NCBI RefSeq assembly: GCF_913778665.1
Contig: NZ_CAJYVQ010000011.1
Span: 372,001 to 436,000, forward strand
From: an uncultured Stenotrophomonas sp.
Lineage (GTDB): Bacteria > Pseudomonadota > Gammaproteobacteria > Xanthomonadales > Xanthomonadaceae
Direction of reading: 5' to 3'
Length of the DNA stretch: 64,000 nt
In this document: in pieces, positions 43,873 through 64,000 of the stretch
Layout of the letters: every line of letters begins with the position of its first letter
How positions within the stretch are numbered: position 1 is the first letter of the stretch
Made by a program: the position numbers and the translations under genes
The notes under the pieces: model-generated
Seen by the model: only the letters and a program-made list of their open reading frames with translations
Told to the model about the DNA's origin: nothing
The model's database searches: none

Positions 43873-43994
43873 GGCGTTCCTACCGTTGCTGCCCTCCGCG
43901 ATGCGGCAGGCAGGTCCTTCCCCTGTAGGCTGACGGTAGCAGATGGAAAACGGCAGCGCACGCGACCGCCGTCACACCGGATTAACGTTCCGGA

Positions 43995-44621: not shown

Positions 44622-44738
44622 CCATCGATGGCGTCAGGCCAATCAGTTTCGTGAGGATGCCATGAAGATGGAGCGGTCGCCACGTCGAGCAGCCCGGCTC
44701 GTTCAGCCGGGTCCATCGATCGCGCCTGAACGCTGCGG

Positions 44739-48300: not shown

Positions 48301-48952
48301 GCACGCCACTCTTCTCGCCCAGCTGTGTCGGGCCCTGCGCCAGCTCGTTCGCGGTTCCATCGCCGAAATGAATGCCGCCGTGCCAAAGACTGTTGCCGCC
48401 GACCGGATAGAACCCGTCTTCGGCACCGCGCATGGCATGCATGTACGCCGCCAGGCTGCGCGCCTGCTCGCCGTCCTTGAGCAGGAACGGATACCCGAAC
48501 GCGCCGGAGACGGCCTCGCCATCGGGGAAATCGAAGGTCGCCGGATCAACCGTCTTGTGCAGCACCAGCTTCCCGGACTCGGCGAACGGATGCACCTCGA
48601 AATGCAGGTGATTGCCCGAACTCACCCCGCCTGTCATCCCCACCGGCCCGAGCGGATCGCCCTTCTTGACCTTGTCCTTCACCTTCAGCGGCGACGCAGC
48701 CGACATGTGCGCATACATCGTATGCACCACCTGGCCGCGGATCATGTGCTCGATGGCAATCGTGTTGCCGTACCCGTTCATCCAACCGGTGTAGACCACA
48801 TGGCCGTCGGCCGCCGCCGGAATCGGCGTGCCCGCGGGCGCGGCCCAGTCCTGTCCTTCGTGGCGCTTCACCGTGCCCAGCGTTGGATGTTTGCGGGCCT
48901 GCGACCAGTTGCTGCTTACCCGGAACGGCGGGCCAGGGTTATACGTCGGCAT
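45341..48952 (-). CDS. Putative T6SS effector: M23 peptidase + EF-hand + lysozyme-like domain
   Basis: This 1203-residue protein has no signal peptide. Residues about 20-140 form an M23 endopeptidase with zinc ligands His31 and Asp35 (HEGQD) and His115/His117 (HLHFEV), plus His82. A Lys/Ala-rich linker and a Pro run follow. Residues 906-917 form a perfect EF-hand loop (DANNDGDLSPAE: Asp906, Asn908, Asp910, Asp912, Glu917) in front of YESEWGGGMQKWDEL, a region I know from T6SS peptidoglycan hydrolases. The C-terminus, from about 1010, has IIAHGEGGYESYN with candidate catalytic Glu1028, and resembles a muramidase. Two-enzyme cell-wall effectors such as Aeromonas TseP are known. It lies between two vgrG genes. 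Confidence 0.82.
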   Translation of the reverse strand: MPTYNPGPPFRVSSNWSQARKHPTLGTVKRHEGQDWAAPAGTPIPAAADGHVVYTGWMNGYGNTIAIEHMIRGQVVHTMYAHMSAASPLKVKDKVKKGDPLGPVGMTGGVSSGNHLHFEVHPFAESGKLVLHKTVDPATFDFPDGEAVSGAFGYPFLLKDGEQARSLAAYMHAMRGAEDGFYPVGGNSLWHGGIHFGDGTANELAQGPTQLGEKSGVRCIADGEVVAYKLDSTYPAVQFRENQLKALYSTGFTLVRHTLVLPESTQLKACQPESETADLEEQTRSAQMRSAIAVKMQAEDKKAAADAKEAQKAAAAEAAKDKKKGIKTEVPKVEATPERTESKPETLVLFSLYMHLMDWRGYRQDEKIPRAKYWKGDSTYRVTASAAEDTQKVPPPPPPPPQEAPAVDPFALPRSPFSSDRGFGLGQSPLGGGWGQAPVGDQASIGQRGFGLEAAAEQATPQRVPYGSLPTPGASVATTAPEAASATAASTPVAPVIKGRKGLNIRSEPNGKLLGMLAQGARVRFTETKAVGKGVWGHIGELLEGEIIAAEAVDGQVKPGAETGWVYLSRMEAVFDKADPVDQVVVLDKPFPVKAGDIIGQIGEYQTFAVARASPSPGMRSMLHLEMFSGGDVPGFIGRSRAYAATRPENERNMLVLEVGVKLVTPAASDATLAAGSMVVVAADSPKGPWAKVHKCVVRQASRKALGKFNEKTRRYAGGEQFTGWYISGKGERTQDAKTGASWPDREVLVQLADELWAERARLATAPAGTALPADVPAWNAYPLRIDNLTTAPSRLARVMARVELDALESKSVATDSKGVRWWWVSTDQASGWVCQKDHPLTRWESPWAWPCFEYVEEGQLTPMDLMAWKLFQMARSQPAEKADHKMRADRVRGSSLHRKIYQLLDANNDGDLSPAELKQAQQNPLLARYLQRLIARYESEWGGGMQKWDELDAMMLRAQGNEWAGEKVRIRNLQWWDALKGVKDFPTSLEVFHFHPLAMISNFMGLGIKVSGGDFIRRLGDIIAHGEGGYESYNTGTKNVPGDKVGFSFVHAPAGTVTGKTIDQILATDALDGTDRNRMFATGKYQTIIKTLRAAKEAMGLTGAEKYDAELQERVFAEYLLGKAGGGALANFVRNGTGSVDDAQYAAAKEWASIAAPKGYKTKKDNVSDGNLSYHEGAANSANAGSTRGLRELLMEIAESRK

Positions 48953-48973
48953 CGTGCTGTTCTCTATCCTTGA

Positions 48974-49588
48974 TCAAGCCCAATCGGGCGTGCATATCAA
49001 TTGCGATTTCTGCGCGTTGTCACCCTGCGGAACGAGCTTCGGCCTTTCGCCGCGCTGGCTGCGTGCATCATCGGGAAAATCAGACCCCAGCGACCTGCGC
49101 GCATGTATGCGTGCCTGATCCAGCGGCAGATCGATCAGGATGCCGATCGGGGTGGGCGCGGTTCCGAGGTGGGCAACCACTCTGGACACCGGCAGGCCAT
49201 GGAAATCAGCATTGACGCAGAAGTAGGCAATGCCGAATTCCTCATCGCGCTCGCACGGCTCCGGTGTGTGGCGGGCCAGGTAGGGATTGGCGGGGCGGCC
49301 TGATTCGGCATTGAGATACCAGCCCTTCGGCTGGCAATCGAGCAGTCCGTCAAAGAGCGTTGCAGTGCTGTCCGGATCGCCCGCCAGCGGCGGCTCGCCC
49401 TGCGCGGCATGCGCGTCGGCGGCGATCTGCGCGTCCACCGCAGCCTGCGCGGAGCGGGCAGCGGCGGGCTGTTCGGCATCCTGGGGTGTTGCCTGTCCGC
49501 ACGCCGCCAGCGGCAACAGCAGGCTGAGCAGAAGGATCGGGCGCAGCACACCGGACGCGTGACGATTGACGGGCTTGCTCTGATTCAT
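48974..49588 (-). CDS. Lipoprotein upstream of effector, candidate immunity protein
   Basis: This 204-residue protein has a lipoprotein signal (ILLLSLLLPLAACGQ), an Ala-rich linker and a domain with LLDCQPKGWYLNAESGRP and FGIAYFCVNADFHGLPVSRV. I do not recognise a family. It lies 21 bases before the dual peptidoglycan effector gene and 53 bases after vgrG2, all on one strand. Periplasmic lipoproteins next to cell-wall effectors often give immunity; this is an inference from context. Confidence 0.72.
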   Translation of the reverse strand: MNQSKPVNRHASGVLRPILLLSLLLPLAACGQATPQDAEQPAAARSAQAAVDAQIAADAHAAQGEPPLAGDPDSTATLFDGLLDCQPKGWYLNAESGRPANPYLARHTPEPCERDEEFGIAYFCVNADFHGLPVSRVVAHLGTAPTPIGILIDLPLDQARIHARRSLGSDFPDDARSQRGERPKLVPQGDNAQKSQLICTPDWA

Positions 49589-49641
49589 GGTTCCGTGCCT
49601 TTTCGAAGAACCCCGGTATGGATCCGGGGCATGCGTTTCCA

Positions 49642-52404
49642 TCACCCCGAGAATCCGGTCAACCTCCAGCTGGAGGTGTCGCTCTGGCTCCAGTTCGGCA
49701 GCTCGGTCTTGAACTGCGCCGGACCCAGGAACGACTTTGTTCCGGCATGGACGGTGATGACACCCGGGCACGCGAAGGTGATGTTGCCGCCCTCAACGGT
49801 GATGCTGGCACCACCGCTGGTGGCGATGTGCACAACCTTCCCTGCCTCGACTTCAACCACCCCCTGCGCGCTGCTCGCACGCAGCGGTTGCCGGGCCTGC
49901 ACATGGATGGCATCGGCCTGCGCCTGCACGTCCACCACACCGGTGCCTGCCACCGCAACCAGCGTGGGACCGCCCGCACCCGCACCGGAACTGGCCGCGG
50001 CCAGCATGCCCAGCGCCTGCGATGCATGAAGCCGCGCCTGCCCCATCACGGCCAGGTCGCTATGGCTGCCACTGGACAGCAGCACGCCCTCGCCACTGGA
50101 CCACTGCAGCGTTTGCCCGGCGACGTGCACCACACCCTCGGGCGCGGCCACGCCCAGCAAGGGATCCCCGCTGTGCGGCACGCGTTTGTCACCGGGCGAG
50201 GCGTCGCGCTCGCGGGCCTGCTCGGTCGCCGCATCGAAGCCTTCGCCGGTCAAGGTGGTGCGCACGCTCTTGAGGATGCCTGGCAGCGGCGACTGGCCGG
50301 TCATCAGGACCGAGCGCTGCTTCGCCCCCGCCCCCTCCTGCATCGCCAGCGGGCTGGTCACGTGCTTGCGCGCGGCCTGGGTGAAACGCTCGCCCAGCGT
50401 CTGCAGCTGCGCCAGCAGCGCGGAAGGCTGCACTGCTTCACCCGCAGGCGCCGTCGGACGGCGGCCATAGGCCGAGAACCATGCGCCTGCCGGCGCACGC
50501 ACTGCGCCCCATGCATCGCTGCGCAGCTCGAAGCCGGTACCACGCAGGCTGCCGACGTAGTTGTCGGCCTGGTGCCGCAGGTGCCCCAGCGTCAGCTGCG
50601 ATGCCTGCTGGCTGCTGGCCAGCTGCGCACGCAGCTGTTGGTTGGAATCGTCGAACAACAGATGGTTGCTGCCGTCACCGCCGTCCCACTCGCGCGAGCG
50701 GATGCCCCAGAGCGCGCCGCCGTGGCGATGGGCCTGGTCACCGGCACCGGCCGCGTGCCACGCCGGCGCCTGGCCACCACTGAGATTGGCCTGCGCACTG
50801 TTGCGCGCATCACCGGCCTGGCCATAGGCCGACAGGTCGCTCTCTCCATTGGCACCGGCGGTGGTGGGGGCCACGCCGGCTTCGCCGCGGCCGTTGTACA
50901 GCGCGCCCAGCACCAGCGGCCGATCGATATCCGCATCGAGGAAGCCCACCAGCACTTCCTGGCCGATGCGCGGCAGGAACTGACTGCCGACACCCGGGCC
51001 CGCATAGCGCTGCGCTACACGCAGCCACGCGCTGTCATGGGCACCATCGCCCTGCCCGTTCTGGAAATGAAAACGCACGCGCACGCGGCCGTGACTGTCG
51101 GCATGCAGGTCCTTGCCGGTGCTGCCCTGGCCGGCCACCACCACCGCGGTCTGATAGCCGGGCACGGTCGGGCGGGGATTGAGCCGCGCACCGGTGCCAT
51201 CCACCAGCAGCGGGCGCCAGGGCGTGGCGCGCGGCACCGCGTCGAAGCGATTGCCGTAGCCGACCGCGTCCGCCTGTTGCCACAGTGCTGCGTCCTCGGA
51301 CACGCCGGGTGCAACACCCAGCGCATCCTCGAGACTGCGCCGCAGGTCGGTGGGCAGGTTGTTGATGCCCGCATGGTCGACGGCCACCAGCAGCAGCTCG
51401 GGCGGCGTCGTGCCGGGAGCCTGCTGCAGTCGCAGCCAGTTGCCCGAGTGCAGGCCACGCACCGTACCGTGCCCCTGCCAGCGGCGGCTGTGCGCTTCGC
51501 GCGCCTGTGCCAGCAGCCGGGCCTGGCGCGACGCGGCAGCACTGTCACTGAAGGCATAGGCGCCCACGGCATCGAAATCTTCGCGCGCCGACGCACTGCC
51601 ACCGCCGTCCATCGGCGACTGGCCCGCCAGCGCACGCACCTGACGGTAATCATCACTCTGCAGGCTGACCGTCGTGCTGGCCAGACGCCGGCACAGGCCG
51701 ATGGCCTGCACGCTGTCACTGGCTTCGGTGGCATCGCTGCGATGGAAGCGCACGCCGGTGCCGGCACTGGTGGCATCTTCCGGCAGCGCGACACTGTCGG
51801 CAAAGATCTCCATGCCGTTGCCGCAGGGCGCTTCCTCGTCGGCGTACAGCCGCCAGCCCAACCCCTCTTCGGCCAGCAGCCGCTGCAGGAAATCAGCGTC
51901 ACTCTCGCGGTACTGCACGCAGTAACTGCGTACGCGCGCGCCCAGGAAGGCATCGACGCCCTCGGCCCAACGCCAGCGTGCGATGTCGCCGTGTCCAGCG
52001 AGGACCGCATCGACGATGGCACGAAGGCCCTGTTCCTGGAAAACGCGGCTGTGGCGCGCATGCTGCAACCACCAGGTCCACGACACCAGCCGCAGCCGGT
52101 AGCGCACCAGCCCGCCATCGCCTCCGAGCCTGGCGGCATCGGCAACCAGGCCACTGCGTTGCCATTGCCCGCCGTCGGCAAGCTGCGTGATCAAGGTCGC
52201 GCGCGTGGCCGGCAACGATGCCAGTTCAATACCAGCGTCGGTGGTGAGTACATCGACCTCGGTCCACGCATCTTCGCCCAGCGCGTCGCGCCCACGCCAG
52301 CGCTCCACGGTGCATGCCGTGAATGCCTCGGACTGCAGACGATAGAGACGCTGGGCATCGCCAAGACCGGCGGCCTGCGTCATCAGGTAATTCAGCTGAT
52401 CCAT
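49642..52404 (-). CDS. vgrG: T6SS spike protein VgrG2
   Basis: This 920-residue VgrG has the same architecture as VgrG1: a start with LYRLQSEAFTACTVERWRGR, the core YAGPGVGSQFLPRIGQEVLV and DIDRPLVLGALYNGRGE, and a DUF2345 end with ITFACPGVITVHAGTKSF. The last 25 residues (LPNWSQSDTSSWRLTGFSG) differ from VgrG1 and may specify its cargo, presumably the dual peptidoglycan effector encoded downstream. The start at 52404 is chosen by alignment with VgrG1. It is divergent from tssA. Confidence 0.95.
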   Translation of the reverse strand: MDQLNYLMTQAAGLGDAQRLYRLQSEAFTACTVERWRGRDALGEDAWTEVDVLTTDAGIELASLPATRATLITQLADGGQWQRSGLVADAARLGGDGGLVRYRLRLVSWTWWLQHARHSRVFQEQGLRAIVDAVLAGHGDIARWRWAEGVDAFLGARVRSYCVQYRESDADFLQRLLAEEGLGWRLYADEEAPCGNGMEIFADSVALPEDATSAGTGVRFHRSDATEASDSVQAIGLCRRLASTTVSLQSDDYRQVRALAGQSPMDGGGSASAREDFDAVGAYAFSDSAAASRQARLLAQAREAHSRRWQGHGTVRGLHSGNWLRLQQAPGTTPPELLLVAVDHAGINNLPTDLRRSLEDALGVAPGVSEDAALWQQADAVGYGNRFDAVPRATPWRPLLVDGTGARLNPRPTVPGYQTAVVVAGQGSTGKDLHADSHGRVRVRFHFQNGQGDGAHDSAWLRVAQRYAGPGVGSQFLPRIGQEVLVGFLDADIDRPLVLGALYNGRGEAGVAPTTAGANGESDLSAYGQAGDARNSAQANLSGGQAPAWHAAGAGDQAHRHGGALWGIRSREWDGGDGSNHLLFDDSNQQLRAQLASSQQASQLTLGHLRHQADNYVGSLRGTGFELRSDAWGAVRAPAGAWFSAYGRRPTAPAGEAVQPSALLAQLQTLGERFTQAARKHVTSPLAMQEGAGAKQRSVLMTGQSPLPGILKSVRTTLTGEGFDAATEQARERDASPGDKRVPHSGDPLLGVAAPEGVVHVAGQTLQWSSGEGVLLSSGSHSDLAVMGQARLHASQALGMLAAASSGAGAGGPTLVAVAGTGVVDVQAQADAIHVQARQPLRASSAQGVVEVEAGKVVHIATSGGASITVEGGNITFACPGVITVHAGTKSFLGPAQFKTELPNWSQSDTSSWRLTGFSG

Positions 52405-52638
52405 GCCATTTCCAGAGTGAAGGCGCCAGATCGAGTCTGTACGGCGCCGGTTTCCAGCCTTTGAATCTACCAGATTGTGGTGTTCGTCAAAATCACGGCG
52501 CAGAATGTGGCGATGAACTGCGCTCTCCGTCACATAATTGGCGGAATGGCGCATTCAGTCTTGGCGACTTTCTCACTTCCCGCAACCGCGTTCACATTCA
52601 ACCGCTAGAATCGACCGCAGTCCCCAACGAGACCTGCC
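52405..52638. promoter_or_regulatory. Divergent promoter region of vgrG2 and tssA
   Basis: This 234-base region is more AT-rich than the genes around it. A good -10 box, TAGAAT at 52606-52611, lies 27 bases before the tssA start; I cannot assign a -35 box at normal spacing. No sigma-54 site is apparent. Confidence 0.4.
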
Positions 52639-53700
52639 ATGCTGGATCAGGAAGCCCTGCTGGCCCCGATTTCGGACCACGCCCCGACCGGTGAAGACCT
52701 GTCGTTCTCGGCGGAGTTTGATCGGATCATCGAAAACCGTCGTGCCGACGACCCCACCCTGGACCAGGGTGCGTGGCAGACCGACATCAAGTATGCCGAT
52801 TGGACCAGCGTGCTGCGCGAATCCAACGACCTGCTGCAGTCACGCACCAAGGACCTGCGCGTCGCCGGCTGGCTCACCGAAGCGGCCACCCAGCTGGACG
52901 GGTTCCAGGGCCTGGCCAGCGGCTACCGGGTCACTGCCGGCCTGTGTGACCGCTACTGGGACGAGGTTCACCCGCAGGCGCCGGATGGCGACTTCGAGGA
53001 ACGCATCGGCAACCTGAGCTGGCTGCTGACCAATTCACTGCAATGGTTGCGTTCGGTGCCGATCATCGTCGCACCGCAGGGCCGCTTCAGCCTGGCCGAT
53101 TTCGAACACGCCCATGCCCGCGCGGCCAGTGGCGAGGAAGATGACGGTCGGCCAGGACTGGAGATGCTCAATGCAGCCCGTCGCGATACCCAGCACGGGT
53201 TCTACCGGCAACTGGCCGATGACCTGCCCGAGTGCAGCCAGGCCCTGGCCGAACTGCAGGCTGCGGTCGACAACCGGCTCGGCCTGGATGGCCCGAGTTT
53301 CAGTGCGGTGCGAGAGCAGCTGGAACACCTGCAGCGCACCGTGCTGCGCTTCGCGCGCGAGGCGGGCGTGCTGCTCGATGGCGAGACCGGGCCGGCAGAG
53401 GACACGTTCAGCGGCACTGACTTCGCCGCGGATGCCCCGGCATTCGACCCGGCGCCGGTCAGCGCCGCCCCGCGTGGGCCGGCCGGTGCTCCGGGCTCGC
53501 GCAAGGAAGCACTGCAGCAACTGCGCCAGGTCGCCGAGTTCTTCCGTCGCACCGAGCCGCACAGCCCGGTGGCCTATCTGGCCGAGAAGGCGGCACGCTG
53601 GGGCGAGATGCCGCTGCATGTCTGGCTCAAGCGGGTCATCAAGGACAACAGCACGCTGGAGCAGATGGAAGAAATGCTGGACGTCAATCCGGAAGATTGA
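52639..53700 (+). CDS. tssA: T6SS protein TssA
   Basis: This 353-residue protein is TssA, which organises baseplate and sheath assembly. The N-terminal ImpA_N domain is clear: LLAPISDHAPTGEDLSF at the start, then DWTSVLRESNDLLQSRTKDL and WDEVHP. The C-terminus (VAYLAEKAARWGEMPLHVWL) is of the short TssA type. It is the only plus-strand core gene in the T6SS region here, facing the tssM operon tail-to-tail. Confidence 0.93.
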   Translation: MLDQEALLAPISDHAPTGEDLSFSAEFDRIIENRRADDPTLDQGAWQTDIKYADWTSVLRESNDLLQSRTKDLRVAGWLTEAATQLDGFQGLASGYRVTAGLCDRYWDEVHPQAPDGDFEERIGNLSWLLTNSLQWLRSVPIIVAPQGRFSLADFEHAHARAASGEEDDGRPGLEMLNAARRDTQHGFYRQLADDLPECSQALAELQAAVDNRLGLDGPSFSAVREQLEHLQRTVLRFAREAGVLLDGETGPAEDTFSGTDFAADAPAFDPAPVSAAPRGPAGAPGSRKEALQQLRQVAEFFRRTEPHSPVAYLAEKAARWGEMPLHVWLKRVIKDNSTLEQMEEMLDVNPED

Positions 53701-53752: not shown

Positions 53753-54532
53753 CTACTGGATCTTGAACTCGATACGACGGTTGCGCGCGCGGCCCTCGTC
53801 GCTGGTATTGTCCGCCACCGGCTCGTCAGGCCCCTTGCCCAGCACGTCCATGTGACTGCCCGGGATGCCCTTGGACATCATGTAGTTCTTGACCGCCAAC
53901 GCGCGCGCATGGCTCAGCGTCAGGTTGGATTCGCGCTGGCCCACATTGTCGGTATGGCCGATGACCAGGAAGCGGCTGTCCGGCATCTGCGCCATCTTGG
54001 CCACCATCTCGTCGAGGATGCTCATGCCGAAGGGCGTCAGGCGTGCGCTGCCACTCTGGAACTCGATGATGCGGTTGGCCAGGGTCTGGTCCAGCACGTT
54101 CTGCTGCGAGCCGACCTTCAGTGCATTGGTGACCGTATAACTGGTGTTGCTGGCCAGACTGAGGTCACTGGCAACCTGCTGGCGCAGCGCCTCGTTGCCC
54201 ACCTCACCCGTGATGCGCACGGCCTGGCCATTCACCTCCAGCTTGCCCGGTGACACCCGCTTCAAGCCCGGATTGATCATGCCCGCGACATAGTCTCCCC
54301 AGTTCGGTGGCGTCGCGATGGTTTCCACCTGGATGCGGTCAACCACGCGCTCGGCGCCGTACACCGCGCGCAGATTGTTGAGCAGCTTGGCCTTGGTGGC
54401 CTGATCGGGCACCACGCCTTCGATGACCACCGGCCGTTCACCGGCGGCCGCAGCCGGCCCATTCTGCGCGGCAAGCGGTGCGGCCGCCAGCAGCAGCGGC
54501 CACATGAGATGGAAAGGATTGCACAGGCGCAT
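53753..54532 (-). CDS. T6SS-associated OmpA-family protein
   Basis: This 259-residue protein has a signal peptide (LLLAAAPLAAQ), a BON-like segment (VVIEGVVPDQATKAKLLNNL) and a C-terminal OmpA peptidoglycan-binding domain (VIGHTDNVGQRESNLTLSHA; NRRIEFKIQ). It may anchor the membrane complex to the cell wall, a task served by TagL or extended TssL in other systems. The gene starts 2 bases after tagF. Confidence 0.88.
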   Translation of the reverse strand: MRLCNPFHLMWPLLLAAAPLAAQNGPAAAAGERPVVIEGVVPDQATKAKLLNNLRAVYGAERVVDRIQVETIATPPNWGDYVAGMINPGLKRVSPGKLEVNGQAVRITGEVGNEALRQQVASDLSLASNTSYTVTNALKVGSQQNVLDQTLANRIIEFQSGSARLTPFGMSILDEMVAKMAQMPDSRFLVIGHTDNVGQRESNLTLSHARALAVKNYMMSKGIPGSHMDVLGKGPDEPVADNTSDEGRARNRRIEFKIQ

Positions 54533-54534
54533 CG

Positions 54535-55518
54535 TCAGGTTCCCAGGAAAGTCTCGCCGAACAGCTTGCGTGCGGTGGCCAGCGCCAGGTCGTCACGGTC
54601 GAGGAAGCTGCCGAAGCGGTTGAGGTTGTAGTCGCCGCGCAGGTAGTCGTCCACCCACTCCGAGTGCTGGATGCGGATCAGGAAGTCACCGGCTTCGGCC
54701 GGGTCCAGCACCGCACGCAACACCTGACGATCGGCGCCGTTGAAGCCGACGATCATGCTCGGCGCGGCATCGTTGCGGATCAGCACCGCCAGTTCGAAAT
54801 CACCGCGGGCGACGAAGCTGGACAGCAGGTCGAGCCAGAACGCCGCCACCAACGGCCGGTAGGCCGGATCTCGCACCAGCGGGAACACCAGCGCCTTGTC
54901 GATGTTGACGTCGCCGCCGCCGAGCACCGGCTGCAGCAGCAGGCCCAATGCCGGCAGCACCTGACGCAGCGCCACGTCGCCATGCCCGGAATCGCGCAGG
55001 CGCTGTTCGAGGTCGGCCACCGTGGTGCTTTCCAGGAAGTCCTGGAAGCTGCCGTTGTAATCGCCCGGGTCGGTGCTGATGGTGAAGCGCGCGTCGGCCA
55101 GCTGGGCCAGCGCCTGCGCCGCGTCGCCGGCCTGGTAGGCCTGGCGCGCCAGCCGGGCCAGGCCCGACCAGGCGTTGGACATGGCCAACGGGCTGCGGCC
55201 AATGAACGTCAGCGGTTCCGGTGCATCCAGGCGCAGCGCCGACAGCAGCGGGAAGCGTCGTTCGGACGCATCACGGCTGGCCAGGAAGTGGCCGCACAGC
55301 ACCATCTTGCTGCGTGAGCCGAGGAAGGCGTAGTGGATCTCCGGCGCTTCGTCGTAACGCTGCTTCCAGTCCGGACTCTGGCTCAGCAACTCCAGGCTCT
55401 CGCCGGCCCAGCGATCGAGCCAGCCCAGCAACTGGTGGTTGTCGGCGGCGCGGACGAAATCTCCGCGTGAGGGCACCTTGCCGAAGTACGACACGCCTGC
55501 ACTGACCACCCGGCTCAT
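54535..55518 (-). CDS. tagF: T6SS-associated protein TagF
   Basis: This 327-residue protein matches TagF (SciT/ImpM family), seen in SYFGKVPSRGDFVRA and WLDRWAGESLELL at the N-terminus, and HYAFLGSRSKMVLCGHFL. TagF represses T6SS assembly post-translationally in Pseudomonas and Agrobacterium. The start overlaps the tssM stop as ATGA, so both are translationally coupled. Confidence 0.93.
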   Translation of the reverse strand: MSRVVSAGVSYFGKVPSRGDFVRAADNHQLLGWLDRWAGESLELLSQSPDWKQRYDEAPEIHYAFLGSRSKMVLCGHFLASRDASERRFPLLSALRLDAPEPLTFIGRSPLAMSNAWSGLARLARQAYQAGDAAQALAQLADARFTISTDPGDYNGSFQDFLESTTVADLEQRLRDSGHGDVALRQVLPALGLLLQPVLGGGDVNIDKALVFPLVRDPAYRPLVAAFWLDLLSSFVARGDFELAVLIRNDAAPSMIVGFNGADRQVLRAVLDPAEAGDFLIRIQHSEWVDDYLRGDYNLNRFGSFLDRDDLALATARKLFGETFLGT

Positions 55519-58500
55519 CGTGCACCTCCTGCCGCCGGTGCCGGTGCAGCCGTCGTGCCTGTCGCCGGCGCGACCGGCGTAACCGGCGTTCCACCGGCCA
55601 CACGCTCAGGCAGCTGCAGCCCGCGCTGCCAGTCACCACCACCTTCGCCTCCGCCCCCGCCGGCGCGGCGCACGATACGCATCTCCACGGTCACCCCGAC
55701 GCCATTGCCATTCCAGGTGATGCGGCTGGAATCATCCAGGCGCTCGTACTCACCCTCGGCCATCAGGCGATTGAAGCCATTGGAGCCGGGCGCACTGAAC
55801 ACCTCCACGGTGCGACCGTCGCCAGTCACGGCGGTGATCTTCACACCGGGCACCTGGCCCACATTCGGGTACTGCATGGTCGTCCATTGCGGCGGCGTAT
55901 TGCGATAACGCAGCACCTGGCCATCAATCTCGATGGTGTATTCCAGGGCACCGGCCGCCGGCGCCGGCAGGATCTCGAAGATCGTGGTGTCCTGCGCCGC
56001 ACCGGCTGCCGAGCCGCTCACCCAGTTGCCGTAGTTGGCGACCAGGTCAGCCGACAGGTTCACGCCCTGCCCGGCCCAGCGACGGGTCTCCAGCAGCGGA
56101 CCGCGCTGGATGACCAGCGTGCCCAGTGCCTCCTTGTTGAAGGCGGCGATGCTGCCGCTGGCGCCGAAGATGCCGGCGATGTCACTCGGTGCGGCATCAA
56201 CGTCGGAGTTCAGGTTGAACGGATACTGCTGGCCGATGCGCGCCTTGAACGGGTCGTAGACCTGCGCCTTCCAGGTCTTGTTGACCTCCTCCTCGGTGGG
56301 CGGAATCAGCGCACTGAAGGTCTGGGTCAGCGGGCGCAGCAGTAGTGGACGCAGGGCCTCGCGCTGCTTCTCGTCCAGCCCGGTCAGCACCTGCTCGTCG
56401 ACCAGCGCCAGGCCCACGCTCAGCTCGGAGCCTTCATTGCTGAAGGTGTCCTGCATCAGCTTGCGGGTGCCCACGCCGATCTCGCCCTGGCTCTTGATCG
56501 CGTTCAGGCGCGCGCGCAGCTTGGCCAGCGTTTCGAAGTAGGCCGTGATGACGGCCGGCTGGTCACCGCGCTCGGTGGTCAGTCGGGCAATGCCTTCAAA
56601 GGCCTTGCCGATCGGGCCAACGCCCTGCGCTGCGGCCGTCGCCGCCGGGTCCTTGCGCAGGATGGTGCGCTGGAACCAGGCCACGAAGCCCTTGCGTGCC
56701 TTGCTCGAGCGCGCCAGTGCCGGCGGGTTGTCCCACACCGTCTCTTCGTTGATACGCTCCAGCAGGATGCGCAGCGGCGAATTGCTGGCATCGCCCAGCT
56801 TGTTGATGCGTGCCACGGCTTCATCGAACGTGCTGAACTCGGCCACGCTCAGGCCCTGCACGAACTTGCTCCACTCGCGCGCGTAGTCGTTCTTGTACAG
56901 GTTGACCAGCTCGCGCGAGACATGCTCCGGGCTGCCGGCCAGCGACAGATCGCTCTGCTCGGTGGTGCCCAGCACCCAGTCGGTGGTGCTGAGCTGGGTG
57001 TTGGCCGCTTCCTTGATCGCGTCCTGCACGTAGTCTTCCCACGCCTTGCGCGAGAACGCGCCGGAGATCGCGTAGCTGCCATTGATCATGCGCCCGTTGC
57101 GCTCCACGCCGACCAGGTTGTCGACCGTGGTCGTGCCAAAGCGGGCACCGGCGCGCGCCTTGATCTGCGCATACACGCGCTCCATCGCCGGCTGCCCCTT
57201 CATCACCTGGCCCAGTGCCTGGCGCGTGTCGGAGACCAGGGTCACCTTGTTCTGCACCTGCGGCCAGCTCGGAGCGCCGGCCTGCGCCACGTAGAAGGTC
57301 ATCAGCTTCTCGGCAGCGCGGACCATTTCCTCGCGGCTCATCTGGCCACGGTTGGCCTCCAGCCAGGTCCGCCAGAACAGCGTCAGCTGCTGCGACAGGT
57401 GCGCGCCCTCCACGTACTTGGGGTTGCCCAGCATCAGGTAGGTCTTGAGCGCGTTGTAGGCGTCGTTGGTGCTGGTCGGCGAGGCATTCTGGTACAGCAC
57501 TTCGCTCTCGGCGGCAGCACTGTTGCCCTGGCCCAGCTTGTCACGCTCGGCCACCACCTGGCCCAGGTAGTTCTCCAGGTTGGCCACGGTCGGCGCCAGC
57601 ATCACCTGCTGCATGCCGTGGTTGTACTCGCGCAGCAGCTTCTCGCGGATCGCCGTACCCTGGTACAGGCCCAGCCGGGTCGTGATGCCACCGTCCTGGC
57701 CATAGCGGTCCAGCTGTTCCATGCGGTCCTGAAGCAGCAGCAACGCATCGATGCGTGATTTCAGGTCCATGCGGTCCTTCTGCACGCGCACGGCCTGGTC
57801 CAGATCCTTGGTGGCATTGGCCACCAGCTGCGCGTTGGTGGTGTAGGACCACGTCCACAGGCCCAGCGCCAGCGCCAGCACGCCGACCGCGCCAAGGAAA
57901 ACGCCATAGCGCAGGCGGTTCTGGTGCGGGCTGGAGTACTGCCGCACCAGTTCCTTGTCGGCGAAGATCACCTTGCGGAACAGGTCCTTCAGGAAGAACG
58001 CGGTATGCCCGGTCGGTGCCTCGTCCACGTTCGAGCCGCGTTCCAGGTTGAACTGGCGGCCGACGCGCTCGGAGGCGTGATGCACCGAGCGCCCTTCCTG
58101 CAGCGCGCTGGAGAAGTAGAAGCCACGGAACACCGGCTTGAACTGGTAGGGGTTGTCTTCGAACAGGGTGGCGATGAAGGTGCGCAGCGCCGGCTTGATG
58201 CCGACGAACTCCAGCGGCAGCGACAGCAGCCCCGGCGACACTTCGCGCCCGCGCTGCATCGCCATGTGGGTCAGGCTCATTTCCTTGATGCCTTCGGCCA
58301 GCTCATCGAAATGGCTGTCGAACGCGGCCAGTGCGTCACCCTGCTGCTGCACGTCGAACGGCAGCGTGGCACCCCACACATGCTCGCGCTCGCCCGGGTC
58401 GAGGTTGCGGAAGAACTCGCTGAAACCGGCGATCAGGTCGGCCTTGGTGAACAGCACATACACCGGCGCGAACACTTCCAGGCGCTCGGTTATCTCCTGC

Positions 58501-59225
58501 ACGCGCTGGCGCAGGTTCTTGGCCAGCTCGATGGCGAATTCCGGCTTGCTGCCGGACAGTTCGGCCAGGCTGGCGGCGATGATCACGCCGTTGATCGGTG
58601 CACGCGGGCGGTTCTTCTTCAGCAGGCCGAGGAAGGTCAGCCACTCCATGCGGTCCTCGACGCTGACCGAGTAGCGGCCTGCGGTGTCGAGCACGATGCC
58701 GTTGGTGGTGAAGTACCAGTCGCAGTTGCGGGTGCCGCCGATGCCCTGCACCACGTTGCCGCGGTTGTCCTCGAACGGGAACTGCAGCCCGGAATTGAGG
58801 ATCGCGGTGCTCTTGCCCGCCGCCGGGTTGCCGATGATCACGTACCACGGCAGTTCATAGAGCGCGGCATTGCCCTTCAGCACGCCCATCCGCGACGACT
58901 TGATCTGCTTGACTGCATCCATCATCCGCGAGCGCAGCGCCTCGGTGTCGGCACGCTGCGCCGGCTGCGCCCCGGCCACCGCCTTGTCCGCCTCGTCCTT
59001 GACCATCGCTTCCACGCGCTTGGCCGCGCGCCGGGCCAGGATCCGCTTGATGATCCAGACCAGCAGCGCCAGCACCAGCAGGCCGGCCAGCACAACGGCC
59101 ACCCAGATGCCGATCTGCCGCGCCTCTGCCTCACCGTAGTGGGCCAGCGCAGCGGCACCGACCAGGCCGATCACCATCCACAGGCGGTAATCGCGCAGGT
59201 AGTAGCTGAAATTGCTCAAACTCAT
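55515..59225 (-). CDS. tssM: T6SS membrane complex protein TssM (IcmF-type)
   Basis: This 1236-residue inner-membrane protein is TssM, the backbone of the T6SS membrane complex. It has two N-terminal helices, a cytoplasmic NTPase domain with Walker A at residues 132-140 (GNPAAGKST), a third helix (GVFLGAVGVLALALGLWTW) and a long periplasmic region with IcmF-related domains (GPLLETRRWAGQGV). The Walker motif is intact, so the NTPase may be active. It ends in a Pro/Ala-rich tail. The start at 59225 gives the typical short N-terminus before the first helix. Confidence 0.96.
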   Translation of the reverse strand: MSLSNFSYYLRDYRLWMVIGLVGAAALAHYGEAEARQIGIWVAVVLAGLLVLALLVWIIKRILARRAAKRVEAMVKDEADKAVAGAQPAQRADTEALRSRMMDAVKQIKSSRMGVLKGNAALYELPWYVIIGNPAAGKSTAILNSGLQFPFEDNRGNVVQGIGGTRNCDWYFTTNGIVLDTAGRYSVSVEDRMEWLTFLGLLKKNRPRAPINGVIIAASLAELSGSKPEFAIELAKNLRQRVQEITERLEVFAPVYVLFTKADLIAGFSEFFRNLDPGEREHVWGATLPFDVQQQGDALAAFDSHFDELAEGIKEMSLTHMAMQRGREVSPGLLSLPLEFVGIKPALRTFIATLFEDNPYQFKPVFRGFYFSSALQEGRSVHHASERVGRQFNLERGSNVDEAPTGHTAFFLKDLFRKVIFADKELVRQYSSPHQNRLRYGVFLGAVGVLALALGLWTWSYTTNAQLVANATKDLDQAVRVQKDRMDLKSRIDALLLLQDRMEQLDRYGQDGGITTRLGLYQGTAIREKLLREYNHGMQQVMLAPTVANLENYLGQVVAERDKLGQGNSAAAESEVLYQNASPTSTNDAYNALKTYLMLGNPKYVEGAHLSQQLTLFWRTWLEANRGQMSREEMVRAAEKLMTFYVAQAGAPSWPQVQNKVTLVSDTRQALGQVMKGQPAMERVYAQIKARAGARFGTTTVDNLVGVERNGRMINGSYAISGAFSRKAWEDYVQDAIKEAANTQLSTTDWVLGTTEQSDLSLAGSPEHVSRELVNLYKNDYAREWSKFVQGLSVAEFSTFDEAVARINKLGDASNSPLRILLERINEETVWDNPPALARSSKARKGFVAWFQRTILRKDPAATAAAQGVGPIGKAFEGIARLTTERGDQPAVITAYFETLAKLRARLNAIKSQGEIGVGTRKLMQDTFSNEGSELSVGLALVDEQVLTGLDEKQREALRPLLLRPLTQTFSALIPPTEEEVNKTWKAQVYDPFKARIGQQYPFNLNSDVDAAPSDIAGIFGASGSIAAFNKEALGTLVIQRGPLLETRRWAGQGVNLSADLVANYGNWVSGSAAGAAQDTTIFEILPAPAAGALEYTIEIDGQVLRYRNTPPQWTTMQYPNVGQVPGVKITAVTGDGRTVEVFSAPGSNGFNRLMAEGEYERLDDSSRITWNGNGVGVTVEMRIVRRAGGGGGEGGGDWQRGLQLPERVAGGTPVTPVAPATGTTAAPAPAAGGAR

Positions 59226-59241: not shown

Positions 59242-60678
59242 TCAGGAGGCCGACGGCGCATCGGCCGCCAGCGTCGGGGAAGGAAGCGGGTCAACCAGGC
59301 CGAACAGGCGCTGCTGGTTGTCGGCGACGCCGAGCAGCAGTACCGGTTCACTCTGGCGTTGCAGTTGTACGTGGGCCAGCGCCAGCTGGGCCACCGGCAG
59401 CACCGGGCCCAGCTCGCCGGCGCTGACCGCCAGCGCCAGGCTCTGCGGACTGAAGTCGAGATCGGGGGCGAGCGTCGCCGCGATGGCGGCGGCGTCCACC
59501 ATCAGGTCGCCCCGATGATCGGCGTCGTGCAGCACGAACTGGGCCTGGCCGCTGTCAGCGCCCAGCGCAGCATGCCACTGCGTGGCCAGCGCGGCCAGTT
59601 GACGACGCTGCTCGGCCGGGCGTTGGCCTTCAATCTGTTCGGCGCGCACCAGCTGCGGGCGCCACACACGACCGGCGCCTTCACGCGCCGCACTCGCGCT
59701 GGCCAGCAGCACGCCCGCCGCGCCCTCGCCCGGCACGCGGCCGTCGGGGTCCTTGGCCGTGGCCAGCACGCCGGCCGTCTGCCACGCCGAAATGATGTTG
59801 GCATCAATGCTCGACGACGAAGCCAGCAGCAAGTGCCAGCGCGGCGTGGACGACGCGTGCAGCGCATCGATCACCCGCTGCAGATGCGGCCAGACTTCGC
59901 GGGCGCCATCGAGCGTGGTGACGCGCACATCGAAGCGGCGCGCATCCAGGCCTGCCAGTCGCGCCTGCTCAAGCAGCCAGTCCTGTGCCCAGTGGCGCAG
60001 CGGATCGGACCAGCTGCCGGGCACTAGAAGGTCGATGCTGAGTACGTTCTCCACGCGCTGTTCGTCGCGACGACGCAGCCCAGCCACCACCACCTCCTCA
60101 GAGGCCACGATCTCCGGCAGCGCCGTGAACACGGTTTCCAGCAGCTCTTCCAGCACCGGTCGCAGCAACGCCAACGCGCGGCGTTCATGCGCCGCCGTGT
60201 CGATGCCATCCTGGCGCGCCTGCACGACCTCGAACTCGTCCAGGCCCTGGGCCGCGCTCATCCGCACCGGCAGGTTGTAATTGTCACGGAAGCGCCCATC
60301 CAGCGAAGGTCGCGGTGGCGCAGCAGCCGTCGCCAGCAGCGCCGGCGCATCCAGATCGACGCCCAACCGGAGGGTGCCGGCAAGCAGCGCGACCGAAGGC
60401 GGCGCAGCGGACTGCGGATCGGCCGCATCCTGCTTTGCAGCTCCCGCCTTGCCGTCATCAGACGTGGCCTTGTCCAGTGCCGATTCCGCGCCACGGCGCA
60501 CAGCACCGCGCAGCATGAAGCCTGCGCTGCTCAGCCCAACAGGCAGCAGGCCCAAGTAGGCCAGCATCTGCATGCCGGTCGGTACCGTGCCGCTGTTGCG
60601 CCAATAGAGAATCGTCGCGCCCCAGGTGGCGATGAACACCATCACCACCGACGCTGCCTTGCCCAGCCATCCTGCCAT
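59242..60678 (-). CDS. T6SS-linked membrane protein with ketoacyl-synthase-like region
   Basis: This 478-residue protein has two N-terminal membrane helices (VVMVFIATWGATILYW; LAYLGLLPVGLSSAGFML), a charged linker and a long soluble part. A segment around residues 280-330 reads LLASSSSIDANIISAWQTAG, then DPDGRVPGEGAAGVLL with GEG at 317-319. It closely resembles the RDGFVxGEGAG element of beta-ketoacyl synthases, but the classical Cys and His residues cannot be found. I interpret it as a degenerate thiolase-fold protein of the T6SS operon. The function is unknown. It begins 42 bases after PAAR and ends 16 before tssM. Confidence 0.65.
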   Translation of the reverse strand: MAGWLGKAASVVMVFIATWGATILYWRNSGTVPTGMQMLAYLGLLPVGLSSAGFMLRGAVRRGAESALDKATSDDGKAGAAKQDAADPQSAAPPSVALLAGTLRLGVDLDAPALLATAAAPPRPSLDGRFRDNYNLPVRMSAAQGLDEFEVVQARQDGIDTAAHERRALALLRPVLEELLETVFTALPEIVASEEVVVAGLRRRDEQRVENVLSIDLLVPGSWSDPLRHWAQDWLLEQARLAGLDARRFDVRVTTLDGAREVWPHLQRVIDALHASSTPRWHLLLASSSSIDANIISAWQTAGVLATAKDPDGRVPGEGAAGVLLASASAAREGAGRVWRPQLVRAEQIEGQRPAEQRRQLAALATQWHAALGADSGQAQFVLHDADHRGDLMVDAAAIAATLAPDLDFSPQSLALAVSAGELGPVLPVAQLALAHVQLQRQSEPVLLLGVADNQQRLFGLVDPLPSPTLAADAPSAS

Positions 60679-60720: not shown

Positions 60721-60981
60721 TCAGCGCAGGCCAGTGATGGCCTGCGAGGCCATCAATGTCGCCCCGCAGGCCGTGCGGTCGCCGTCGCGCGCTACCGGCT
60801 GGCCATCGACCATTACCGTGGCGTCGCCACTGACGATCGTGGTGGCGCCATGCACCGCGCACACGGCACGGTCGCCCACCCGGGCCACCGCCTTGCCATT
60901 GATGTCGGTCTGGCCGGTGCCTGCCACCACGCTGCCGCCGTGGCTGAGCTTGTCACCGACAACGATAAACGGTCGTGCCAT
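60721..60981 (-). CDS. PAAR spike-tip protein
   Basis: This 86-residue protein is a stand-alone PAAR, the metal-binding tip that sharpens the VgrG spike. The repeats GDKLSHGGSVVAGTGQTDI, VGDRAVCAVHG and DGDRTACGATL are visible, with His and Cys residues for zinc. No effector domain is attached. It could serve VgrG1, VgrG2 or both. It belongs to the tssM operon. Confidence 0.92.
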   Translation of the reverse strand: MARPFIVVGDKLSHGGSVVAGTGQTDINGKAVARVGDRAVCAVHGATTIVSGDATVMVDGQPVARDGDRTACGATLMASQAITGLR

Positions 60982-61081: not shown

Positions 61082-61963
61082 TCACCCTTGGCGTGACAGC
61101 TCTTCACGCTTGGCTGCACGGGCCGCGCGGCAACGCGATGTCATTTCCACGTGAACATAATCCTTGATGCTGCGCCAGTTTCCGCCCCAGTCCAGGCCCG
61201 CCTGCTCAGCCAGCTCGCCGTAGAGGAAATAACCGCGCTTGGTCCACTCATCGTTCATGTCCCACTGCAGCTTGCCGTCGCGGATCGGCGCACTGTCCAC
61301 GCCCAGCCCGTACTGGTGACAGCTCTGCCAGGCGCCGGCGCGTGTCGCCTTGCCCCCGGCCATCAACTCCGCCTGCCGCTCGGGGCTGCGATAGCCTTCA
61401 ATCAGCACCATTTCATAGCCGTACTGGCGGCGCATCACTTCATAGATGGCCAGCACGCGCTGCTGCAGATCAGCATCGATCTGACCCCACTTGCGGTCCG
61501 CCGTCACGATTTCAGGCCGCAGGCGACGCACCTCGGCGGTGGTGAACACCTCCGGTGGCGGCGGCGGCGGCGGGGCCAGGCGCTCGCCCCGCAACAGCTG
61601 GGCGACCATGGAACTCGACTCGGCAAGATCATCGCCGCGAAAATCGTCGAGCACCACCGTCTGACGTGTGACCAATATCACAGTTGGGGGAATCAACAGC
61701 GCCGCGGCCGCAATCGCCATGATCGGCCAATGCCGCCGCAGCGCACTGTGCGCGGCGCCGGCTTCTTCACGAACCCCACTGCGCACCCGCGTCACACCGT
61801 GGCCGACTTTATCGCCGACCCGGCCCGCCCTGCGACGGAATCCACCCAGCCGGCGCGCCAGCGCTTCACGCAGCGATTCCACCGTTTCGGGAAACAACAA
61901 CACCCAGCACACCACGGCTACAAGCACTACCGCCGCAATGGCAGCAACCACGATTGGCAACAC
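61082..61963 (-). CDS. Membrane-anchored M15 peptidoglycan endopeptidase (TagX-like)
   Basis: This 293-residue protein has two N-terminal membrane segments (VVAAIAAVVLVAVVCWVLLF; IMAIAAAALLIPPTVILV), a Pro run, and a C-terminal M15/VanY-type domain. Zinc ligands are His216 and Asp223 (SCHQYGLGVD) and His271 (YVHVEM). It resembles endolysin L-Ala-D-Glu peptidases and the T6SS factor TagX of Acinetobacter, which opens peptidoglycan for T6SS assembly. Its place directly upstream of PAAR and tssM supports that role; an effector role is less likely because it is membrane-anchored. Confidence 0.8.
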   Translation of the reverse strand: MLPIVVAAIAAVVLVAVVCWVLLFPETVESLREALARRLGGFRRRAGRVGDKVGHGVTRVRSGVREEAGAAHSALRRHWPIMAIAAAALLIPPTVILVTRQTVVLDDFRGDDLAESSSMVAQLLRGERLAPPPPPPPEVFTTAEVRRLRPEIVTADRKWGQIDADLQQRVLAIYEVMRRQYGYEMVLIEGYRSPERQAELMAGGKATRAGAWQSCHQYGLGVDSAPIRDGKLQWDMNDEWTKRGYFLYGELAEQAGLDWGGNWRSIKDYVHVEMTSRCRAARAAKREELSRQG

Positions 61964-63232: not shown

Positions 63233-63997
63233 TCAGGAGCCGCCGGTGGTCCACGGCAGAAGCGCCAGCAGAACCATCGGCGCAAGCACGATCACTGCAT
63301 TGAACAGGGCCGGCAGCAACCAGCGAACCCATAGCGCGCCTGTCCACTGCTGCGGGTGCGCCGCTGGGTTGGGCGATGCCTTCATCGTCAGAGCATCCAC
63401 CTCACCGGCCAACGCATCGGGCCAGGCAACACGTGGGGCACGGCGCAGCAGCCAGAATCCCGCCAGTTCGAACCAGAACACGAGGCTGCCCGGAAACAGG
63501 ATATGAAGCCATCCGGAAAGCCCGCTGACGCGGTGGTCACGATCAATCCGAGGATCGAACACGAGCCGCTCCAACTGCACCAGGTCGGCCTGGACCCCGT
63601 CCCATGGCGGAGGGGCCGCGCTCGCAGGAAGTGTGCTCATGTCGCCGTTCATGTAGTGCCGAAGAAATTCCCATAGATCTTCGGGACCGGCATCGTTGAG
63701 CGCAGGCTCAGACAGGGGCAGGAACGTATCGATCTGGCGACCGCCTGGCGCCAGCGCAACGACGGCAAGCACTTGAACTGGCATGGACACATGCTTGCCG
63801 CGGACCGAATCCGATCTGCTGATGGGCACCACGGTATCGTAGTCCAGACTTTGCCAGCCCCTGCTTGGGCCCAACCAAGCGTAGAACTTTCGAAGCCGCC
63901 GACTGAGCACCACCGGCGGCTCCGCAGGTTTGCGATAGAGATGAAGGGCCAACGCGAGGCAGCCGATCATGCCGGCAAAAAACAGCGCTGCCAGCAC
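63233..63997 (-). CDS. DUF6708-like membrane protein (possibly extends past right edge)
   Basis: The visible 254 residues have an N-terminal hydrophobic helix, a soluble part with VVLSRRLRKFYAWLG and IDTFLPLSEPAL, then EDLWEFLRHYMNG, and further helices near the end (LLPALFNAVIVLAPMVLLALL). The order of these motifs resembles DUF6708 proteins, which occur beside T6SS effectors in Burkholderia and relatives. The role is unknown. A GTG at 63997 is the first possible start, but the frame is open to the edge, so the true start may lie outside. Confidence 0.6.
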   Translation of the reverse strand: MLAALFFAGMIGCLALALHLYRKPAEPPVVLSRRLRKFYAWLGPSRGWQSLDYDTVVPISRSDSVRGKHVSMPVQVLAVVALAPGGRQIDTFLPLSEPALNDAGPEDLWEFLRHYMNGDMSTLPASAAPPPWDGVQADLVQLERLVFDPRIDRDHRVSGLSGWLHILFPGSLVFWFELAGFWLLRRAPRVAWPDALAGEVDALTMKASPNPAAHPQQWTGALWVRWLLPALFNAVIVLAPMVLLALLPWTTGGS

Positions 63998-64000
63998 TAT

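What the first reader, a model, noticed from the sequence alone, without database searches (positions are those of the whole stretch)
59242..60678. Ketoacyl-synthase-like pseudoenzyme in the tssM operon
The stretch DPDGRVPGEGAAGVLL is a striking match to the conserved GEGAG element of beta-ketoacyl synthases, yet the protein starts with two membrane helices and lacks recognisable Cys-His-His residues. A thiolase-fold protein repurposed as a T6SS structural part would be unexpected.
Basis: partly seen in the sequence, partly recalled or inferred. Interest (0 to 1): 0.6.

Follow-up and report, generated by a model that had tools for sequence, protein, structure and literature searches.

The report
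Enzyme-like strut of a bacterial harpoon
This Stenotrophomonas protein has the shape of a fatty-acid-making enzyme without its working parts and is encoded beside the membrane base of a bacterial weapon; a relative was described in Acinetobacter as a stand-in for a missing part, but here both parts occur together, so it probably does a different job.

Summary
The 478-aa protein (59242-60678, minus strand) has two N-terminal membrane helices and a domain with a ketoacyl-synthase (KS) fold: AlphaFold2 pLDDT 80, pTM 0.75; best Foldseek match an ishigamide KS/CLF, E 1.1e-10. It has no cysteine. It lies 16 bp before tssM in a Stenotrophomonas T6SS.

It is a homologue of A. baumannii TsmK, a pseudo-ketoacyl synthase essential for T6SS (PMC10564176): a profile built without Acinetobacter sequences finds A. 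baumannii TsmK at E 4e-21. That paper calls TsmK Acinetobacter-specific and a partial substitute for the missing lipoprotein TssJ. My data argue against both: relatives sit beside tssM in three further families of the class, 10 of 12 genomes carrying them encode TssJ, and the TssM 'GS-linker' motif is absent from 13 of 13 non-Acinetobacter TssMs examined.

The best PDB sequence match of the profile is not a metabolic KS but Tla3 (DUF2875), a T6SS effector adaptor (8YZ3, E 1.5e-6). T6SSs may thus share a pseudo-ketosynthase group used for docking.

The parts
59242..60678 (-). TsmK-like pseudo-ketoacyl synthase gene, 478 aa
60601..60657 (-). first predicted membrane helix (aa 8-26)
   Evidence: Kyte-Doolittle window; AF2 helix 2-29
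60511..60567 (-). second predicted membrane helix (aa 38-56)
   Evidence: Kyte-Doolittle window; AF2 helix 35-73
59269..60408 (-). ketosynthase-fold domain (aa 91-470)
   Evidence: model pLDDT about 79-97 in most ten-residue blocks, lower (51-71) at 151-160, 191-210 and 461-470; fold matches span about 91-470
59704..59751 (-). DPDGRVPGEGAAGVLL, KS GEGAG-like element (aa 310-325)
59284..59682 (-). C-terminal part alignable with Tla3 (aa 333-465)
55515..59225 (-). tssM, 1236 aa, immediate downstream gene; Gly-rich stretch near the C-terminus but no strict GxxGxxxGxxG motif in the last 150 aa
   Evidence: TIGR03348 E 1.6e-201
60721..60981 (-). PAAR spike-tip gene, immediate upstream gene
   Evidence: PF05488 E 1.9e-25
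61082..61963 (-). tagX-like M15 peptidase
   Evidence: PF13539 E 1.5e-12; matches L065:28494-29447 of A. baumannii at 136 bits
54535..55518 (-). tagF
   Evidence: TIGR03373 E 2.2e-33
53753..54532 (-). tagN, OmpA-like
   Evidence: OmpA-family models; name by position
52639..53700 (+). tssA
   Evidence: TIGR03363 E 9.4e-116

Best explanation
The gene encodes a TsmK-type pseudo-ketoacyl synthase: two N-terminal membrane helices anchor a catalytically dead KS-fold domain, most likely in the cytoplasm, beside TssM, TssL and TagX. By analogy with A. baumannii TsmK (shown there by pull-downs and deletion: binds TssM, TssL, TagX and the baseplate protein TssK; stabilises the membrane complex; needed for Hcp secretion), it works as a scaffold that steadies the TssM-TssL complex and helps dock the baseplate on it. 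Shown here: predicted fold, loss of the nucleophile, homology to TsmK, recurrent position beside tssM, coexistence with TssJ. Inferred: cytoplasmic orientation (positive-inside rule), binding partners and docking role in Stenotrophomonas. Because TssJ is present in the same T6SS cluster, the role cannot simply be replacing TssJ.
For: Fold: (includes 4TKT, Z 24.0, the best DALI match named in the TsmK paper). No Cys. Homology to A. baumannii TsmK: BLASTP E 4e-10, 20% identity; hhalign probability 85.7; an HMM built without it scores it at E 4e-21, top non-self hit of 728 sequences. Position: PAAR and TagX on one side and tssM on the other in the window and in L002-L006 of the same genus; directly before tssM also in G230, G335, G431, G444, G482 and A. 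baumannii. Co-occurrence: 6 of 61 genomes (own plus relatives) have it, and the same 6 of 61 have the matching TssM type at 2154 bits or more; the other TssM copies found at E up to 1e-60 in that set reach at most 326 bits. TsmK and TssM distances run in parallel across 11 taxa (Mantel rho 0.79, 1 of 9999 permutations as high), as expected of genes inherited together.
Against: No experiment exists for this protein. Two Paraburkholderia T6SS clusters with a related TssM (49% identity to the window's) have no TsmK within the 39 kb read, so TsmK is not an obligate part of T6SSs with this TssM type. The membrane-helix part of the model has low confidence (ten-residue means 50-77 for residues 1-60, below 50 for 61-90). 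Two of 12 genomes with the gene lack a detectable TssJ (G430, 85% complete; G444, 99% complete). In G335 the tssJ gene lies about 256 kb from tsmK, and in G033 and G482 on another contig; for most genomes other than the window's and G230 I judged only by coordinates that tssJ belongs to the same T6SS. Identity to A. baumannii TsmK is only about 17-20%. The Mantel result may reflect common descent of the operon only.
Confidence: 0.8

Rival explanations
1. TsmK is a substitute for TssJ, as proposed for Acinetobacter, and the Stenotrophomonas gene is a stage in that replacement.
For: In A. baumannii deletion destabilises TssM foci, and none of 893 complete Acinetobacter operons had TssJ (PMC10564176). 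G444 and G430 have TsmK and no detectable TssJ.
Against: 10 of 12 genomes with the gene carry TssJ over the Pfam cut-off, inside a T6SS structural gene cluster in the three cases read (own L014, G230 L083, G335 L082). TssJ is an outer-membrane lipoprotein, whereas TsmK's bulk is predicted cytoplasmic. The GS-linker said to accompany TsmK is absent in 13 of 13 non-Acinetobacter TssMs beside a tsmK.
Confidence: 0.08
2. TsmK is mainly a cargo-loading platform: like its relative Tla3 it recruits effectors or VgrG/PAAR to the nascent baseplate at the membrane complex.
For: Best PDB sequence match of the profile is the T6SS adaptor Tla3 (8YZ3, E 1.5e-6); hhalign probability 72% for a 3-row Tla3 alignment against 4.6% for a 6-row KS alignment; 3 of 3 Tla3 proteins hit by the TsmK HMM. 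Two of three Tla3 homologues also start with two hydrophobic segments. The gene lies beside PAAR in Stenotrophomonas.
Against: Tla3 serves one effector and is not needed for Hcp secretion (PMC6560169, passages), whereas A. baumannii TsmK is needed for Hcp secretion and killing. P. aeruginosa Tla3 was found in the cytoplasmic fraction.
Confidence: 0.15
3. It is an active or acyl-binding ketosynthase acting on lipids or lipoproteins of the secretion apparatus.
For: KS fold with a well-conserved GEGAAG element. Some KS-fold proteins without the cysteine (chain length factors, KSQ domains) keep partner or ligand functions (family knowledge, recalled).
Against: No Cys at all. In the hhalign register, extended by me by two residues, the first KS His falls on D385, an Asp invariant in 14 of 14 rows; by eye the GH of the second His falls on GP here. 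No acyl-carrier gene was named among the neighbours.
Confidence: 0.04

Closest known systems
TsmK (AsaB, A1S_1301) of Acinetobacter baumannii
   Same: Two N-terminal hydrophobic helices plus a dead KS-fold domain; gene directly upstream of tssM; TagX-, TagF-, TagN- and PAAR-type genes in the same cluster; homology.
   Different: About 17-20% identity; here TssJ is present, the strict TssM GS-linker motif is absent, and the gene lies between PAAR and tssM rather than between tssG and tssM; GEGAAG is kept here but the same place reads AEFAAS in A. baumannii.
Tla3 (DUF2875; Pfam Tla3_N/Tla3_C), T6SS lipase adaptor
   Same: Structure 8YZ3 aligns with the model at Z 24.3 over 302 residues; significant profile similarity in the C-terminal part; T6SS-linked; two of three homologues have two N-terminal hydrophobic segments.
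   Different: Serves a single effector; the profile matches cover only the C-terminal part; neighbours in L111 and L112 are DUF3274 and PAAR genes, not tssM; Pfam Tla3 models do not hit TsmK.
Chain length factor / KS-beta subunits of type II polyketide synthases (1TQY_B, 6KXD_B)
   Same: KS fold; loss of the catalytic Cys in chain length factors is family knowledge; 1TQY_B is the best sequence hit after Tla3 (E 0.0022) and 6KXD_B the best fold hit (E 1.1e-10).
   Different: Soluble partners of an active KS and an acyl carrier protein (recalled); TsmK is membrane-anchored and T6SS-linked.

Membership tests
TsmK (as defined in PMC10564176) | BLASTP to A. baumannii TsmK with E at most 1e-20 and at least 60% coverage | tested here: not met
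   Pairwise BLASTP with the DETAB-P16 protein: E 4e-10, 20% identity, query 10-333 of 478 and subject 8-341 of 470 (68% and 71%); coverage met, E-value not. The paper used the ATCC 17978 protein and UniRef90. A profile search reaches 4e-21 but is not the paper's criterion.
TsmK (as defined in PMC10564176) | KS fold with catalytic residues lost, two N-terminal membrane helices | tested here: met
   (predictions)
TsmK (as defined in PMC10564176) | gene in a T6SS cluster directly upstream of tssM | tested here: met
TsmK (as defined in PMC10564176) | host T6SS lacks TssJ | tested here: not met
   TssJ TIGR03352 E 3.6e-28 and PF12790 E 2.2e-26 in the same cluster
TsmK (as defined in PMC10564176) | partner TssM carries the GxxGxxxGxxG GS-linker | tested here: not met
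   Absent in the last 150 aa of the window TssM; a Gly-rich stretch lies at the same place
TsmK (as defined in PMC10564176) | binds TssM, TssL, TagX, TssK; deletion abolishes secretion | not testable with these tools
   needs experiments
beta-ketoacyl synthase (PF00109/PF02801) | match over the Pfam cut-off | tested here: not met
   0 Pfam families at E up to 10; only a sub-cut-off NCBIfam PRK06147 match
beta-ketoacyl synthase (PF00109/PF02801) | catalytic Cys | tested here: not met
   no Cys in the protein
Tla3 / DUF2875 | match to Pfam Tla3_N or Tla3_C | tested here: not met
   P0001, E up to 10; five homologues, E up to 0.05; distant relation only

The most novel reading that the evidence does not exclude
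T6SSs carry their own family of dead ketosynthases: one ancestor, recruited from a chain-length-factor-like KS, gave both the membrane-anchored TsmK that couples the membrane complex to the baseplate and the DUF2875 adaptor Tla3 that couples a lipase effector to VgrG. TsmK would then be an old docking subunit of T6SSs that also use TssJ, and Acinetobacter lost TssJ later rather than gaining TsmK to replace it.
Probability: 0.4. Interest if true: 0.75.

Novelty: new variant of a known kind. Interest (0 to 1): 0.5.

Why it matters
The published model says TsmK is Acinetobacter-specific and, with the TssM GS-linker, makes up for a missing TssJ. Finding TsmK relatives in Stenotrophomonas and three further families of the class, mostly together with TssJ and without the GS-linker, weakens that correlation and points to a separate job, probably at the membrane-complex/baseplate junction. 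TsmK can now be studied in TssJ-bearing systems where the two roles can be separated genetically. The link to Tla3 suggests that one enzyme fold was reused more than once as protein-docking hardware in the same machine.

Tried and rejected
P0001 alone against PDB sequences (phmmer): nothing at E up to 10; only the 14-row profile reached Tla3 and KS. The G335 protein alone gave only two unrelated glycosylase chains at E 0.94-0.95, and the A. baumannii protein alone nothing at E up to 1. tblastn of P0001 and of the G335 homologue against 72,556 plasmid records: no match at E up to 1, although that collection holds at least one A. baumannii chromosome with tsmK (L065), so absence by a single sequence is weak evidence. 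Genome-contig scan: 5 loci, all Stenotrophomonas; its patterns came from P0001 alone and find close relatives only.

Results against the KS/Tla3 reading: hhalign of the TsmK profile against canonical KS from these genomes is weak (probability 4.6%), Tla3 against KS is nil, and a 3-row Tla3 profile finds 8YZ3 but no KS in PDB. The KS relation of TsmK rests on fold, on PRK06147 and on weak PDB hits. In the class draw 7 of 11 positive genomes had only partial weak matches (E 1.4e-7 to 9.8e-4), and 3 of 5 around G335 likewise; I took these for KS-like proteins without checking each. PF11394 (Tla3_N) was found in 1 of 61 relatives and 1 of 369 of the class draw, the same genome, so the Tla3 comparison rests on 3 sequences plus 8YZ3. 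No tree was built.

Rejected: active enzyme (no Cys); TssJ substitute (TssJ present). Rows dropped: L011 (a metagenome-assembled genome whose tsmK is split over two frames; left as it is and not aligned as TsmK, but its TssM is one of the 13 in the GS-linker count); L002 (same protein as L007); L008 left out of A4 as near-identical to L007.

Papers: PMC10564176 outline and abstract, sections 7, 8, 10 and 23, part 1 of sections 6 and 11, and passages; PMC6653060, PMC10732056, PMC13340143, PMC6560169 passages only; PMC6602968 (AsaA) and PMC11796373 search listing only. 'TsmK' with 'type VI secretion': 2 papers. At least 3 of ketoacyl synthase / T6SS / TssM / thiolase fold: 1 paper, PMC10564176. 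Tla3 with ketoacyl: 1 paper, on a microalga. DUF2875 with thiolase: 0. Broader listings showed no paper joining these, but only 10 of 58 and 10 of 36 were listed in the last two. The paper behind 8YZ3 was not found, so its authors may already have reported the fold of Tla3. Most subscription journals are not held.

Full report
What is there. The minus-strand ORF 59242-60678 encodes 478 aa. Around it on the minus strand lie a tagX-like M15 peptidase gene (61082-61963), PAAR (60721-60981), this gene, tssM (55515-59225, start 16 bp after its stop), tagF and tagN; tssA follows on the plus strand. The window is C11:372001-436000 of a 4.4-Mb genome; the five named relatives are all Stenotrophomonas. 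To the right of the window the same contig carries vgrG, clpV, tssG, tssF, hcp, tssC, tssB, a TPR lipoprotein, tssJ, tssK and tssL (family models) and a 125-aa gene that I call tssE by position only, since no model hit it. In the 61-genome search this genome has one TssM at E up to 1e-60 and, by PF12790, one TssJ, at C11:457289-457639, about 25 kb from this gene. So tssJ and this gene most likely serve one T6SS. Its type (i4b) is inferred: PMC10732056 (passages) groups the commonest S. maltophilia TssC with the i4b TssC of A. baumannii; I did not type this TssC.

Fold and catalytic state. AlphaFold2 on a 14-row alignment gave pLDDT 80.4, pTM 0.75, with high values over most of residues 91-470 and low ones in the membrane part. 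Foldseek found 729 PDB matches at E up to 0.001; the 50 shown are by title ketosynthases, related condensing enzymes, or Tla3, the best being the ishigamide KS/CLF (E 1.1e-10, TM 0.64 by target, 0.50 by query). VIA-align gives Z 23.8-24.9 for the 50 listed, including 4TKT (24.0), named in the TsmK paper as the closest DALI match of A. baumannii TsmK. The protein has no Cys. In the hhalign register with FabF-like proteins, extended by two residues, the first catalytic His falls on D385, invariant in 14 of 14 homologues; this is an alignment inference. Positive residues after helix 2 (5 K/R in residues 55-80, 1 in 25-36) suggest a cytoplasmic domain, as the paper predicts for A. baumannii TsmK.

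Identity. A. baumannii TsmK (gene between tssG and tssM) was taken from NZ_CP077849.1, a chromosome-sized record filed as a plasmid. It matches P0001 at BLASTP E 4e-10, and an HMM of A4, which contains no Acinetobacter sequence, ranks it first of all non-self sequences at E 4e-21 among 728 (ORFs of six loci plus 5 KS and 3 Tla3 proteins). Y25-W26-R27, P33, Y41, P46 in the membrane part and the E of the GEG element are shared. Its single Cys (residue 331) agrees with the paper's 'unique cysteine'.

Distribution. TsmK relatives: 6 of 61 genomes (own plus relatives), all in the window's genus; 4 of 369 in an even draw of the class with strong matches (G000, G004, G230, G335) and 7 more with weak partial ones; 2 strong and 3 weak of 56 around G335; 4 of 61 around G230. 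Draws overlap. In 11 of 12 the gene is directly before tssM; in G430 the contig ends inside it. In the class draw the four genomes with TssM above 1200 bits are the four with strong TsmK matches; the next TssM scores 404 bits. Two Paraburkholderia clusters with 49% identical TssM and with TssJ have no TsmK in the 39 kb read.

Against the published model. PMC10564176 calls TsmK Acinetobacter-specific on BLASTp thresholds, though 30% of its 116 hits were outside the genus and TssJ was found in 77.1% of those non-Acinetobacter genomes; the authors set these aside as 'similar sequences'. The profile evidence and the position next to tssM say that at least the sequences found here are TsmK relatives. 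TssJ is found in 8 of 8 and 2 of 4 genomes with the gene, together 10 of 12. By coordinates tssJ lies 11-32 kb from tsmK on the same contig in G000, G003, G004, G025, G027, G230 and G431, about 256 kb away in G335 (within a tssG-tssL gene group, L082), and on another contig in G033 and G482. G004 has a second TssM of another type but one TssJ match. The strict GS-linker motif occurs in A. baumannii TssM but in 0 of 13 TssMs beside a tsmK elsewhere and 0 of 2 Paraburkholderia TssMs, looking at the last 150-170 residues. The simplest reading is that TsmK was present before TssJ was lost in Acinetobacter. It stays possible that TsmK later made the loss tolerable. PMC13340143 (passages) notes that Acinetobacter and S. 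rhizophila T6SSs are very close in architecture although Acinetobacter lacks TssJ.

Tla3. The top PDB sequence match of the TsmK profile is 8YZ3, P. aeruginosa Tla3 (DUF2875), E 1.5e-6; KS proteins follow at 0.0022 or worse. hhalign gives 72% (E 3.4e-5) for Tla3 against 4.6% (E 0.0088) for KS, and the TsmK HMM hits 3 of 3 Tla3 proteins (E 1.6e-8 to 1.5e-4) but 1 of 5 KS (E 0.005). Tla3 is a T6SS adaptor that links Tle3 to VgrG2b (PMC6560169, passages). A common T6SS-side ancestry is therefore favoured but not proven; Tla3 itself shows no sequence relation to KS, and no tree was built.

Mechanism. In A. baumannii TsmK binds TssM, TssL, TagX and TssK, raises TssL/TssM recovery, and its deletion stops secretion and shortens TssM foci traces. 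I infer the same scaffold role here: a membrane-anchored, cytoplasmic pseudo-ketosynthase joining membrane complex and baseplate, working beside TssJ rather than instead of it. The active-enzyme view is unlikely. An effector-loading function is an open rival.

Noticed in passing
L014:3255-3878 (-), G000:C11:456255-456878: TPR lipoprotein gene next to tssB. A profile of five such proteins picks A. baumannii TslA/AsaA (same position) first of 34 ORFs, E 3.4e-5 with composition bias; single BLASTP against four of them finds nothing better than E 0.67. TslA, called Acinetobacter-specific in PMC10564176, may be its relative.
   Followed up: partly
63233-64000 and L013:1233-3451 (-): Two tandem genes beyond tagX; both resemble DUF6708 (PF20455; E 9.4e-6, just under the cut-off, and 2.2e-15, over it). 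Two similar genes near the T6SS of G027.
   Followed up: no
41098-52554: Island with two VgrG genes (41098-43872 and 49642-52554, TIGR03361 E 4.8e-83 and 1.3e-77) around a 1203-aa ORF (45341-48952) and two smaller ORFs; looks like an effector/immunity region by position only.
   Followed up: partly
G444 (L080): Genome with tsmK, 99% complete, without a PF12790 (TssJ) match and without the strict GS-linker in TssM: a second possible loss of TssJ.
   Followed up: partly
NZ_CP077849.1, NZ_CP104448.1, NZ_CP064203.1: Chromosome-sized (3.7-4.1 Mb) A. baumannii records filed as plasmids in PLSDB, with a tssM match; the first was read and holds a T6SS cluster.
   Followed up: no
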